From positions 868,001 through 932,000 of the forward strand of contig BCIX01000002.1 of NCBI GenBank assembly GCA_001600095.1: a stretch of 64,000 nucleotides of DNA, given 5' to 3'. The notes below the pieces were generated by a model. That model worked only from the letters and a program-made list of their open reading frames with translations. It made no database searches and had not been told where the DNA came from. Shown here piece after piece: positions 27,701 to 32,540 of this stretch. The translations under genes and the position numbers were made by a program. This DNA comes from Bullera alba. Taxonomy: Eukaryota; Basidiomycota; Tremellomycetes; Tremellales; Bulleraceae. Position 1 is the first letter of the stretch. Each line of letters starts with the position of its first letter.

Positions 27701-29997
27701 ACTCGGTCGTAGTCGCCCGGTGAACACTATCGCATTGAGGTATTACATGACCTACTTCAATATGAAAGGGCAGACCCTGGTCGAAGCGTTCAGGTGAGGA
27801 GTACAGGCTACAGGCGGAGTCTTTTGGTCGCTAACTGGTCATAGGGACCTATGCGCCAAACTGTACCTCAAAGCCGAGTCGCAGGAGATCGACAGGATCA
27901 TCGAAGGCTTCAGTGCGCGATACTACGACTGCAACCCAACGACCGTGTTCGGATCTCCCGGCGTCGTTCACACTGTCACAGCGGCAATGCTTATGCTCAA
28001 CACTGATTTGCACATTGCCGAGCTCTCGAAACACATGTCCCGAGGAGACTTCGTCAAGAACGCCATACGGGCGATCCAAGAAAGTGCTCCTGAGAGGGAG
28101 GGGTCGTCCACGCCAGATCTGGTCCGAGACGACTCTGGCAGTGTGCGCTATGCCGGAGCAGCCACCTCAAACCTGCAGTCCTCGGCAAGCGTGAGGGCAA
28201 AGACCGCACCCATAGGTCTGAATGCACCAAGAAGCGCGTCCGCTCCAGTGATGACGATCCCGCCCGCTCTCTCCCGCGAAGATAGCGAGAGGTCGATCGG
28301 GACGATCAACCAGGTCGGAGGCGAAGCCAAAGCCAGAAGTAGCTCCACAACCGTCAGCTCGTTCAACTATACCAAGGCATGGGAGTCAGAGGCCGAGAAT
28401 GCTCTCAAGGTGGGTAGCAATAATGAGATATGTGATCCTAACGCTGCTCTCAGGATATTTTCAACCAAGTTCGAGCGGACAAGATACTGCTGCCGATCTT
28501 TGGCACGGCGACGAACAATCGCCAATCGGTCATCTCCTTGGGAAGCGAATATGGTCGGCCTAGGAACCCACGGTCTCCTGGAGCGAGGTCGAATGACCGA
28601 GTGAACGTTTTGAAGAGAGGCTCAATCCGCGGTATGCAAGGGTTGACCAACGCGAACAATCCCTACGGATCCGCCTTTTCAAATGATGGTCGACTCAGCC
28701 CGACACCTTCGTACGCCACATCCATTCAGGACACTATCGACGGCCACTTTGCCCCCACGATCGGTTTCGCGTCCAACTTGTCCCACACTGTCATCAAGGA
28801 GCAAGACGACGAGCGCAGTCTCCACAGTGGCGTCAGCAACGAGACAGCCGATGAGGATCTAAACGACGATGAGCTCGCTCTCATTGGTCCTCCATGGGCG
28901 AAAGAGGGTATTCTCTGGAGACGGACCGGAAATGAGGCGGCACTTCGCAAGACCGCCAAGAAGGATTGGAAGCAGTTTTTCGTGGTGGTTCAGAGAGGCG
29001 AGCTGTCGATGCACACCTTTGGCAGCGGAAGTGGAAGCAACACTTTTGGTACCGTCGGAGGTGGGAATTGGACGGTGAGTGTTCTGAGTGCCTCGTCGTC
29101 ATCATGGCGCATGTCGCGACCGGCACTGATGCTGATCTTAGAGCAACGCCAATACCGCTGGTCAGTATTCGCTCGTACAGGCTGTAGCGACAGGCCTTCC
29201 AGGTGGATACGCCAAAGATCGCCCTCATGTGTTCAGCATATCTTTCCCCGGCGACGAGACGATATACCTACAAGCCGGAACGGACGATCTAGTGGGCGAA
29301 TGGGTCGCGACGTGTAATTACTGGTCCGCCAGAAAGTCACGGCAGCCACTGCAGGGAGGTGTCTCGAATATGGAGTATGGCTGGCAAAGGGTGTTGCCAA
29401 CAAACGAGACAGATCCACATCGACGCAGCCATTCAAACAACGATGACGACAGGATGTCGGTCAGGTCTGGTAAGAGCAACATGTCGAAAATGGGCACCTA
29501 CTCCCGACGCACTATCGGTTCTAATCCTGCGGACAAGATGCACGTCAATGACTGGAAGCCACCCGCTCCGTCACTCATGCCGAGCCCGCTGGACGAGGAG
29601 AACCAATTGGAAGCTCTGGTAGCATATGTTCAACAGGTCAAGGAGGAGCTGAAGGCGCACAAGGAACTGGAAGAGCCAATGAAGCAACAGGTGAGTTCGG
29701 GCAAAGTCACCTGTACGACCACGCTGATGTCTTGTTCCGCAGTACTCCCCAGGCTCGAAGAATTACATGAAAGCAACGCAGAACTTTACGCTGAGAGGAT
29801 CATACCTGGTCAAGGAGATTTATCGCTACGAGGGATACATCGATACCCTCCGGTCGGCCATTGCGCTGAGATTGAAGAAACAGGGAGAGAAAAAGTTGGA
29901 AAAGAGCTTGGCTAGGTCAATGACCAGTCTGCACAGGAGAGAATCGGAGGCCTCGTCCGGAGCTGGATATCTGGACGCTTCTGACGACGAGGATTGA
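24727..29997 (+). CDS. Large Sec7-PH domain Arf guanine-nucleotide exchange factor
   Basis: ATG 24727 starts MTTLNRSKLGTLG. Nine exons or so can be joined in phase; one short intron (26047-26079) removes an in-frame TAG before NKAKGMFGRMFGASK. The N-terminal ~900 residues are Ser/Pro-rich and disordered. The Sec7 domain spans about 27600-28090. It contains FLDDDFTSVPHDRVAEFLG, YYMTYFNMKGQTLVEAFRDL, IDRIIEGFSARYYDCNP and AMLMLNTDLHIAEL. A PH domain begins near 28900 (EGILWRRTGNEAALRKTAKK, then WKQFFVVVQRGELSM). A C-terminal coiled coil (LEALVAYVQQVKEELKAH) is followed by a Lys-rich end. This layout resembles EFA6/Yel1/Syt1-type GEFs that activate Arf at membranes through PH-lipid contact. The usual glutamate finger after FLG is not evident (FLGRPRPVN), so activity is uncertain. 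Confidence 0.85.
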
Positions 29998-30172
29998 TTT
30001 ATAATGGGGTGTCAGAAGTTGACCGGGTTTGTACGCGAATCACAATATGCCATCTATATGCCATTTTACAAGTCGACTTCCAGATTGCAAGATGGGAGGT
30101 GCGTATGGGTATGATGATACAGTGCATGTCTGAAGAACCTGAAAGAGACCAAACTGGGGGAGGAGGATATGG

Positions 30173-30533
30173 CTAACGAGCTTCGAATTGAACCTGTGGA
30201 TATGATCAGCTGAGTCCTGCATCTTTGTCTCGCGTATAGCTGTTGAACCACCCACAACTACACGATCGTCAGTCTTTGAACTCCGTGTAGCGCTCGAATG
30301 TAACTCACTTCGATGCGTACGGGGCTTGTACATGACTCTGTGTCCGCATTCTTTACATCTTATCGTCTCGTTGACCCGGATTGCCGATTTGACACCGCAA
30401 TCTGCAGCCGGCGTCAGCTGTGTCCTGATGTCCTCCGTGCCGTATACCGGGCGAGTATCGCGACGCAGAACGCACCTCCGCAGATGTACTCCACGACTTC
30501 AGGCGCATTGACAGTTTTCGAACGGTCCGGCAT
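30173..30533 (-). CDS. RPB12: RPB12, shared zinc-ribbon subunit of RNA polymerases I, II and III
   Basis: Reading from ATG 30533 gives MPDRSKTVNAPEVVEYICGD. Exon 1 is 30476-30533 and exon 2 is 30309-30401. The protein has two CxxC pairs, YICGDCG and RCKECGHR, then VMYKPRTHR, as in Rpb12/RPABC4. The conserved ending VQFEAR plus stop is coded at 30173-30193 straight after a CACAG acceptor. It is in phase only if a 2-nt exon, TT at 30256-30257, is used between two normal-looking introns (30258-30308, 51 nt, and 30194-30255, 62 nt). That gives an Ile codon split over three exons and a 57-residue protein, the size of the human subunit. A sequencing indel is the main alternative. Rpb12 sits at the Rpb3 side of all three polymerases. 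The gene is divergent from RMD5, 505 bases away. Confidence 0.85.
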
Positions 30534-31038
30534 GGAATTTGGGTTTTGCGACTGCCATTGACTTTGCGACATGTTGAGCGAGGGAAGTTCTGGAGGTCAC
30601 GGATCGAGTCTTCTGGGTATTTCAGAGCTGATGGTGAAGCAAGCGGGTCCTTGTAATGACTTCAGTCGTGAATGAGATGGTTGTTGTTGTGATTGAGCAC
30701 CTCGAAGCTGGAAGCATCGTCGAAGTGAGCGTCGGTGAGCAAAATCACAGCTCGGGTGGCGACTGCCACGTGACTGCTCCGCGGCGAGCGCCGCCGCCGT
30801 GATGATACCCATGTCATGCAGCCGAGCTGCTGAGGGATGCTGCAGCTGCGGTCAAGCTACATTCAGTGACTGAGATTGCAGGTGGAGAAGATAGCTACGA
30901 TCGAGGTGATCGATCTCTGACCGGCCAGGGTAGCAGAGTATGATTCTCTCTGGGCAATACATCGCCTGTCAGCTTTCTCGATCCACATAAGACCAACAAT
31001 CAGCATCACGGACGGATCTCGAACCCGAATCACACGTC
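30534..31038. promoter_or_regulatory. Shared divergent promoter region of RPB12 and RMD5
   Basis: About 505 bases separate the two start codons, which face away from each other, so the region must hold both promoters. No clear TATA box or named site was recognised. Open frames here are short and not protein-like. Confidence 0.5.
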
Positions 31039-32540
31039 ATGGACATCAACGAAGCGCTCACTGCCCTCGAGGCCCTGTCCGCCTCCCCCTCGACCTCATC
31101 TTCCGGTCCATTGGACGTTCTCTTGGAGAAACACTTTGCCAGTGCGAGGAGCCGGCTGCAGAATGGGGAAGATGCGAAGGACGTGATTGCGGATCTGCAG
31201 AAGAATGTGGCTAAGGCGAAGAAGGAAGTAGAGCGGGGGTTGAAAGGGTGGTATGCGGCTCTGGGTAACGTCGGCAAAGCGGTAGACAAGGTGGGTCCGA
31301 CTTGGGCCAATACCTCTGCTCTGCTCCATAGGTCGCAACCGAGCTGATCCGAACCCCGTTTCAGTCTTTCCCACCAAACCTCGCGGCGATCAGTGCTGCA
31401 TATGACGACCCGCCCTTATTCTCCGAAGGGGAAGCGCCATTGGCTATGGAGAAGGTCATTCTGTCTTCCTTAGGGCGGCAGGGGCTATGGGAAGCGGTCG
31501 AGGCTCTAGAGCAGGTGAGCAAGCTAATCCTCGGCGGCTCAGGAGAGTTGCTGATGATGCTGGCAGGAGACTGGCTTGAAATACGACGAGGAGAAGCGTG
31601 GTCTGAGTGAAGAGCTGCATAGAATCACCGACGAGATAGAATCAGGAGACGTGTCTTCGGCCTTGGCGTAGGTGTCTGTCGTTCCAGTTGAATGAGCCTT
31701 TACTGACCCGGTGACCAGGTGGTGCTCAGAAAACGCGTCTTTCCTCCACCTCCCACCACATCCCTCAGAACTGCCGTACTACCTCCATCGGTCGGTGTTC
31801 CTCCGTCTGCAAGATCCATTAGCAGCGATGAGCTATGCCAGGGCACATCTGATTGCATACGTCCCAACTCAGCCAGTTCTTCAACTCATAACATCGTGTC
31901 TGTACGCCAACACGCCGAGCAAGAGCAATGGGGAAGCCGAGTCCAACGGCAATGGAGACGGTATGGACATTGACACGGAACATGAGCAAGGACGGGCGAC
32001 CAAGGCATCACCCTATAATCACGATAGAGCACCCTTGGTGGCCATGTTCAAGGCGGAATACTGCAGGAGACATGGGTGGCCGAAAGATGACCCGCTGGAA
32101 GTCGTGGTGGATCTAGGGTCTCGAGGCGGAGCTTTGAATGCAATTGAGAAAGCCAGGAGGGTGATGGGAGAAAGATTGGGCAGAGTCCGGACATGGACAG
32201 ATCTACCTGTAAGTCATCGTAAAAGCCCGCAAAGGAATATCTGCTGATCACTGCATTCAGATGGAGATCCCAGTCCCTCCTTCCAGACGATATCACTCGG
32301 TGTTCGTCTGTCCTGTCAGTAAAGAGCAAGCTACGGAGGCCAATCCCCCCAAGATGCTCACTTGCGGGCACGTCATCGCCGAAGAGAGTTTCAACAGGAT
32401 GCTTAAGGGAGGGTGCGTGAGAGTTCCTTCTCGCAATGAGGACAGTGCTGACATCTTCCTCTCACAGACGGCGCTCAGCTAAATGCCCATACTGCCCAAT
32501 GGAGACGAGTCAGCAGGCAGCGCAAAGGCTCTACTTTTAG
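31039..32540 (+). CDS. RMD5: RMD5/GID2, RING subunit of the GID/CTLH E3 ubiquitin ligase
   Basis: ATG 31039 starts MDINEALTALEALSAS. Introns split the gene into about six exons. The N-terminal helices (DVLLEKHFASARSRLQNG and VAKAKKEVERGLKGW) are followed by the LisH/CTLH-CRA region, with SALAWCSENASFLHLPPHPS and the family-typical YARAHL. The C-terminal degenerate RING reads FVCPVSKEQATEANPP, MLTCGHVI and, across the last intron, KCPYCPMETSQQAAQRLYF. RING ligands are partly replaced by Ser, as is normal for Rmd5/RMND5. With GID9/MAEA it forms the catalytic core of the ligase that degrades gluconeogenic enzymes in yeast. Its substrates in this organism are unknown. Stop TAG is at 32538-32540. 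Confidence 0.93.

What the first reader, a model, noticed from the sequence alone, without database searches (positions are those of the whole stretch)
30173..30533. RPB12 appears to need a 2-nucleotide microexon
Exons 1 and 2 code the two CxxC zinc pairs and KPRTHR. The universally kept tail VQFEAR-stop is present right after a CACAG acceptor. The only way I found to join them in phase is through TT at 30256-30257, flanked by a 51-nt intron ending CGTGTAG and a 62-nt intron starting GTGGGT, each with a plausible branch site. The resulting Ile sits exactly where yeast has Leu in TKRLVQFEAR, and the product is 57 residues. Two-nt exons are extremely rare and are missed by gene finders. An assembly indel is the main rival.
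Basis: partly seen in the sequence, partly recalled or inferred. Interest (0 to 1): 0.8.

Follow-up and report, generated by a model that had tools for sequence, protein, structure and literature searches.

The report
Two-base exon in RNA polymerase gene
In this fungus the gene for a small RNA polymerase subunit appears to contain an exon only two bases long, and comparison with related fungi supports the tiny exon, which several of their gene models seem to have missed.

Summary
The finding holds. The minus-strand gene at 30572-30173 encodes RPB12/RPABC4 (the one match in the held genome). Exon 2 ends in phase 1 (CGA|A), the tail VQFEAR-stop follows CACAG, and direct joining is out of frame. 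TT at 30257-30256, between a 51-nt and a 62-nt intron with ordinary signals, restores frame and gives Ile. Of 11 named Tremellales models examined, 7 have Ile there: 4 complete, 3 running on into a donor-compatible GTN-NGT. Back-translation of tails that read through the introns: 15 of 32 KPRT-type tails can encode YAG|TT|GTRNGT, 0.80 expected from shuffles; 0 of 22 other tails, 0.69 expected. A near-identical sequence from another contig keeps the same frame, so an assembly indel is very unlikely. 16 of 22 other tails and one Cryptococcus neoformans model fit a single intron, so the exon most likely arose when a second intron inserted 2 nt downstream of an old one. Corrections: start 30572, product 70 aa, and the microexon is not the only in-frame path, though the alternatives fit relatives badly. 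No cDNA and no relative's DNA was seen. New member of a known kind (1-nt exons are published).

The parts
30476..30572 (-). exon 1 of RPB12 (RPABC4), coding part, likely start ATG at 30572
   Evidence: N-terminus resembles P0001-P0004
30402..30475 (-). intron 1, 74 nt, phase 1, GTGCGT...CAG, CTGAC branch-like site 12 nt from the end
30309..30401 (-). exon 2, second zinc pair and KPRTHR, ends CGA A (phase 1)
30258..30308 (-). intron A, 51 nt, GTGAGT...GTGTAG, CTGAC 11 nt from the end; no in-frame stop, length a multiple of 3
30256..30257 (-). 2-nt microexon TT (exon 3), completes ATT (Ile)
30194..30255 (-). intron B, 62 nt, GTGGGT...CACAG, CTGAT 12 nt from the end
30173..30193 (-). exon 4, VQFEAR-stop

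Best explanation
The RPB12 gene of this tremellomycete has four coding exons, the third being 2 nt (TT). Two ordinary short U2-type introns, each with its own donor, CTGAY branch-like site and YAG acceptor, are removed one at a time by intron definition. Because the acceptor of A and the donor of B are only 2 nt apart, two spliceosomes can hardly sit there at once (inferred), so removal must be stepwise, formally like recursive splicing at a ratchet point that leaves two nucleotides behind. The product is a normal 70-aa RPB12 ending RTHR-I-VQFEAR. Intron A is the older (same phase-1 place in 16 of 22 non-KPRT tails); intron B was most likely gained 2 nt downstream in a tremellomycete ancestor and is missing in some Cryptococcus. 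Shown: signals, frame arithmetic, pattern in relatives' translations. Inferred: order of removal, direction of change, the mRNA itself.
For: Frame and residue: of the five microexon paths listed (1-44 nt, outer splice sites fixed) TT alone has a GT donor and both introns >=30 nt, and it gives Ile with one-residue spacing. Five printed alignments to RPB12 chains of solved structures have no gap between RT.R and V.(F/Y).AR (the organisms, S. pombe, plants and mammal, are recalled). Named Tremellales models examined: 11 (P0001-P0005, P0007, P0015, P0016, P0017, P0019, P0021). Ile in 7: complete in P0001 Saitozyma, P0002 Papiliotrema, P0003 Kwoniella heveanensis, P0021 Tremella mesenterica; Ile then run-on in P0004 Naematelia (IVR..), P0019 K. 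shivajii (IVS..), P0017 K. dejecticola (IVRYQ..), each compatible with TT|GTN-NGT. P0005 and P0016 are compatible with a contiguous TH-GTNCAR after the acceptor, which would also give Ile. Read-throughs: 15 of 32 KPRT-type tails (window included) can encode YAG-TT-GTRNGT, 0.80 expected; 0 of 22 others, 0.69 expected; about 8 lineages by inspection. 9 of 32 fit a split tail AG|GTNCAR without a contiguous form; 8 of the 9 have the strict microexon. Local style: among 46 putative window introns GTGAGT is the commonest donor (15), GTGGGT one of three tied second (4); CTGAC (13) and CTGAT (12) lead the branch motifs; commonest distances 11-12 (biased filter).
Against: No transcript evidence. No relative's DNA could be fetched, so relatives are read by back-translation, which shows compatibility, not letters; whether the DNA of the four complete models is split is unknown. 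17 of 32 KPRT-type tails lack the strict motif: P0005 and P0016 fit no intron B; P0009, P0025, P0125 and P0154 fit only a looser pattern, which 2 of 22 others (P0041, P0180) also fit; the other 11 have 24 residues or fewer, and two of them (P0007, P0015) look like spliced models. None of the five KPRTHK tails (P0025, P0030, P0036, P0045, P0052) has the strict motif, so nothing supports the exon there. Intron A is stopless and a multiple of 3 here and in 6 of 9 lineages by my grouping, one of them a loose match (p 0.04 for 6 or more), which leaves room for an insertion isoform.
Confidence: 0.93

Rival explanations
1. No microexon: intron A is not an intron; a single 62-nt intron with donor GTGGGT (30255) is removed and RPB12 carries 18 extra residues (SELHSSATRSSKTDDRVV) before VQFEAR.
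For: In frame and canonical; the 51-nt stretch has no stop and is a multiple of 3.
Against: The extra stretch differs freely between relatives; 7 of 11 named Tremellales models have Ile instead; in P0020 and P0147, and in the loose match P0009, the decoded intron A is not a multiple of 3, so the same path would break frame; no insertion in the five printed structure alignments; the 51 nt have a complete donor, branch-like site and acceptor.
Confidence: 0.03
2. Assembly or sequencing indel: the genome really has a single intron and the frame is broken by an error.
For: One wrong base count in the region could produce an apparent frame problem.
Against: P0033, an unnamed ENA-source protein from a 950-base contig, keeps the same reading frame through exon 2, intron A, intron B and past the tail, with four residue differences there; 8 tails other than the window's also decode as split.
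Confidence: 0.01
3. One 113-nt intron with a non-canonical end (GT-AC 30308-30196, or a GA donor 30306-30194), giving Lys or Ser instead of Ile.
For: Formally in frame.
Against: 7 of 11 named Tremellales models have Ile; needs a rare splice border while two canonical introns are available.
Confidence: 0.02
4. A nested twin intron (stwintron) removed in two steps leaving nothing behind.
For: Known in fungi (listing and abstract starts only).
Against: Removal of all 115 nt leaves the tail out of frame.
Confidence: 0.01

Closest known systems
1-nt exon of Fusarium CYP621A (PMC12940212, passages seen)
   Same: Fungal ultra-short exon inferred from a phase mismatch inside a conserved motif; missed by gene models; there confirmed by reads
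   Different: 1 nt, a P450 gene of an ascomycete; here 2 nt, an RNA polymerase subunit of a basidiomycete, no reads
1-nt exons of plant APC11 and VPS55 (PMC4674806, PMC8831610, passages seen)
   Same: Conserved microexon of a size not divisible by 3 in a housekeeping gene; stepwise intron removal proposed for APC11
   Different: Plants, experimentally confirmed
Cryptococcus neoformans exons as small as 1 bp (PMC3990503, passages seen)
   Same: Related intron-rich yeast, tiny exons noted from RNA-seq
   Different: Genes not named in the passages seen; the one C. neoformans RPB12 model decoded here fits a single intron at this place (P0016)
Drosophila recursive-splicing ratchet points (PMC8605326, passages seen)
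   Same: Acceptor and donor side by side, stepwise removal
   Different: There AG|GT with nothing kept, in long introns and dependent on a cryptic exon; here TT is kept and the introns are 51 and 62 nt

Membership tests
RPB12/RPABC4 (Pfam PF03604) | Zn-ribbon domain above the curated cut-off | tested here: met
   54.9 bits vs cut-off 24; the one genome match at E <= 0.001
RPB12/RPABC4 (Pfam PF03604) | C-terminal tail RT.R-x-VQFEAR with one spacer residue | tested here: met
   with TT included; five printed alignments to solved chains have no gap there
Ultra-short constitutive microexon | Both flanking introns have donor, branch-like site and acceptor | tested here: met
Ultra-short constitutive microexon | Inclusion needed for frame and residue, conserved in relatives | tested here: met
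   in relatives by back-translation only, 15 of 32 tails
Ultra-short constitutive microexon | Present in mature mRNA | not testable with these tools
   no transcript data held
Recursive splicing | Spliced intermediate that regenerates the donor | not testable with these tools
   needs RNA intermediates
Stwintron | Two-step removal leaves no internal nucleotides | tested here: not met
   net removal of 115 nt is out of frame

The most novel reading that the evidence does not exclude
A 2-nt constitutive exon in a subunit shared by RNA polymerases I, II and III, made by gain of an intron 2 nt from an older one, kept across much of the Tremellales, acting as a recursive-splicing site that deposits two nucleotides and enforces an order of intron removal; retention of the stopless 3n intron A could give a second RPB12 form.
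Probability: 0.4. Interest if true: 0.7.

Novelty: new member of a known kind. Interest (0 to 1): 0.52.

Why it matters
A universal gene carries an exon too small to be recognised as an exon (inference), apparently kept in about eight lineages by my grouping, with natural single-intron comparisons in one Cryptococcus neoformans model and in 16 of 22 other tails. It makes the order of removal, the minimum exon and the birth of microexons by nearby intron gain testable in culturable yeasts, and it would explain odd RPB12 models in five named genomes (P0004, P0007, P0015, P0017, P0019). A review passage says that the RPB12 zinc finger contacts U1-70k of the U1 snRNP (PMC8624252), so the protein itself touches the splicing machinery.

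Tried and rejected
Looked for relatives' DNA: P0011 against viral contigs (4 stretches, none confirmed) and genome contigs (34 stretches, none confirmed). The tails counted come from the 182 distinct proteins so held, so they are a sample of capped lists. Other microexon paths (17-nt with a 28-nt intron; 8-nt and AT with 27-nt GC introns; 17-nt with a GC donor) were rejected for intron size or donor. Paper searches. In the listings I saw no paper on an RPB12 microexon; one search found one paper with both words (PMC8624252), where they occur apart and on other matters (passages); one search found one paper, unrelated by title; two searches showed 10 of 127 and 10 of 173, and 20 of 40. Subscription papers are mostly not held. 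The window intron set came from 957 raw candidates cut to 46 by my own filter (GTNNG donor, CTNAY site, 40-99 nt, long open frames on both sides, preference for GTR..T and YAG), so it is biased towards such signals and cannot show that 115 nt is unusual.

Full report
What is there. The one RPB12 (PF03604) match at E <= 0.001 in the held 19.4-Mb, 7-contig genome is the window's minus-strand locus. Reading that strand: exon 1 from ATG 30572 to 30476; intron 1 30475-30402; exon 2 30401-30309, which ends KPRTHR plus one base A; then 115 nt to the CACAG before GTTCAATTCGAAGCTCGTTAG (VQFEAR-stop, 30193-30173). Joining A directly to GTT gives SSIRSSLAIS, out of frame.

The 2-nt solution. Inside the 115 nt lies GTGTAG|TT|GTGGGT at 30257-30256. 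It splits the interval into 51 and 62 nt; each part, like intron 1, has exactly one CTNAY site, 11 or 12 nt from its acceptor by the script's count. In 46 putative introns of the window, picked by my own biased filter, GTGAGT is the commonest donor (15), GTGGGT one of three tied second (4), CTGAC (13) and CTGAT (12) the commonest branch motifs, and 11-12 the commonest distances. Dinucleotide shuffles give YAG-TT-GTRNGT with both introns at least 40 nt at 0.0001, any YAG-NN-GTRNGT at 0.0037, and a bare AG-NN-GT at 0.19.

It is not the only in-frame path. One search lists single-intron alternatives, the most serious being donor GTGGGT at 30255 with intron A kept as 18 residues. These were judged against relatives.

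Named relatives. Five printed alignments to RPB12 chains of solved structures keep one residue between RT.R and V.(F/Y).AR. Eleven named Tremellales models were examined (order confirmed for Saitozyma, Papiliotrema, Kwoniella, Naematelia and Tremella, recalled for Cryptococcus). Four end RT.R-I-VQFEAR: Saitozyma, Papiliotrema laurentii, K. heveanensis, T. mesenterica; whether their DNA is split there is unknown. Three have Ile and then run on: Naematelia IVRIYPLEN, K. shivajii IVSTEAHL, K. dejecticola IVRYQVQFEAR; R and S can be the NGT of a donor GTNNGT, so these look like models that used the acceptor of A and read into B. K. mangroviensis (RSPIRSSLEF) and Cryptococcus sp. DSM 104549 (RSAIRGSLI) look like the direct A-to-GTN joining that the window also allows, in the wrong frame (my decoding). 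The remaining two, P0005 and P0016, are treated below.

Read-through tails. Many proteins of unnamed source read through the introns. A script asked which tails can encode YAG-TT-GTRNGT with intron A of 40-140 nt. Of 32 tails after a KPRT motif (window included; at least 16 residues, starting with Ser), 15 can, against 0.80 expected from shuffled tails; of 22 tails after other residues, 0 can, against 0.69 expected. The hits are not independent: by inspection about eight lineages (window/P0033; P0010-P0014, P0124, P0127; P0020; P0028; P0079; P0121; P0138; P0147). The KPRT group is a sequence label only; P0082 (Schizopora) is not a tremellomycete (recalled). The 17 misses: P0005 and P0016 (no intron B), P0009, P0025, P0125 and P0154 (only the looser YAG-TH-GTNNGT, which 2 of 22 others also fit), and 11 tails of 24 residues or fewer. 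None of five KPRTHK tails has the strict motif, so nothing supports the exon in that group.

Where the C-terminus can be decoded, 9 of the 32 KPRT-type tails are compatible with a split AG|GTNCAR and not with a contiguous TN-GTNCAR; 8 of these have the strict microexon and P0009 a loose one. Two of 32, C. neoformans P0016 and Cryptococcus sp. DSM 104548 P0005, are compatible with a contiguous TH-GTNCAR (P0005 also with TG), so intron B appears absent there. The remaining 21 decode neither. Of the 22 others, 16 are compatible with contiguous TG or TH, five of them ambiguously also with the split form, and 6 decode neither.

Assembly error. P0033, an unnamed ENA-source protein from a 950-base contig, follows the window's frame from exon 2 past the tail with four residue differences (two in intron A, one at the end of intron B, one in the tail); the last, F to S, fits a silent GTT to GTC change in the VQFEAR frame (inference). 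The two diverge by a frame change only after codons ending at 30103, about 70 nt beyond the stop codon.

How it works, and origin. An acceptor and a donor 2 nt apart can hardly be bound by two spliceosomes at once, so one intron must go first; Guo and Liu argue the same for the 1-nt exon of APC11, combining intron definition with recursive splicing (PMC4674806, passages). Either order leaves a usable site (inference). Intron A at the same phase-1 place in 16 of 22 other tails makes A the older intron and B the probable gain, with absence in some Cryptococcus best read as loss; no tree was built.

What is known. Exons as small as 1 bp were noted in C. neoformans in 2014 (PMC3990503, passages); a 1-nt exon is reported in Fusarium CYP621A (PMC12940212, passages), whose text also cites 2-5-bp exons in Arabidopsis, Drosophila and humans; 1-nt exons are conserved in plants (PMC8831610, passages). 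I saw no paper on an RPB12 microexon (listings, two of them cut at 10). So this is a new, apparently conserved member of a known kind; transcript proof is lacking.

Noticed in passing
window 30258-30308: Intron A is stopless and a multiple of 3; 6 of 9 lineages by my grouping share the length class. An intron-A-retaining RPB12 isoform with an insertion of 18 residues is not excluded.
   Followed up: partly
window 30103 and downstream (3' of the stop codon): P0033 and the window differ by a frame-changing indel about 70 nt past the stop, probably in the 3' UTR.
   Followed up: no
window 30173-30572: A review passage says the RPB12 zinc finger contacts U1-70k of the U1 snRNP (PMC8624252): the gene with this extreme splicing need encodes a protein that touches the splicing machinery.
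   Followed up: no
window 31696-32247 (+): Neighbouring plus-strand frame has a CTLH domain (PF10607, 28.5 bits, cut-off 26).
   Followed up: no
window 28442-29912 (+): Neighbouring plus-strand gene has a PH_9 pleckstrin domain split over two frames (PF15410: 23.7 bits, under the cut-off of 28, and 36.8 bits), suggesting an intron.
   Followed up: no
proteins P0069 and P0140: Mrakia frigida RPB12 is annotated RTKR-S-VQFEAR and Phaffia rhodozyma RTKR-MVTR; both may be mis-spliced models at the same place.
   Followed up: no
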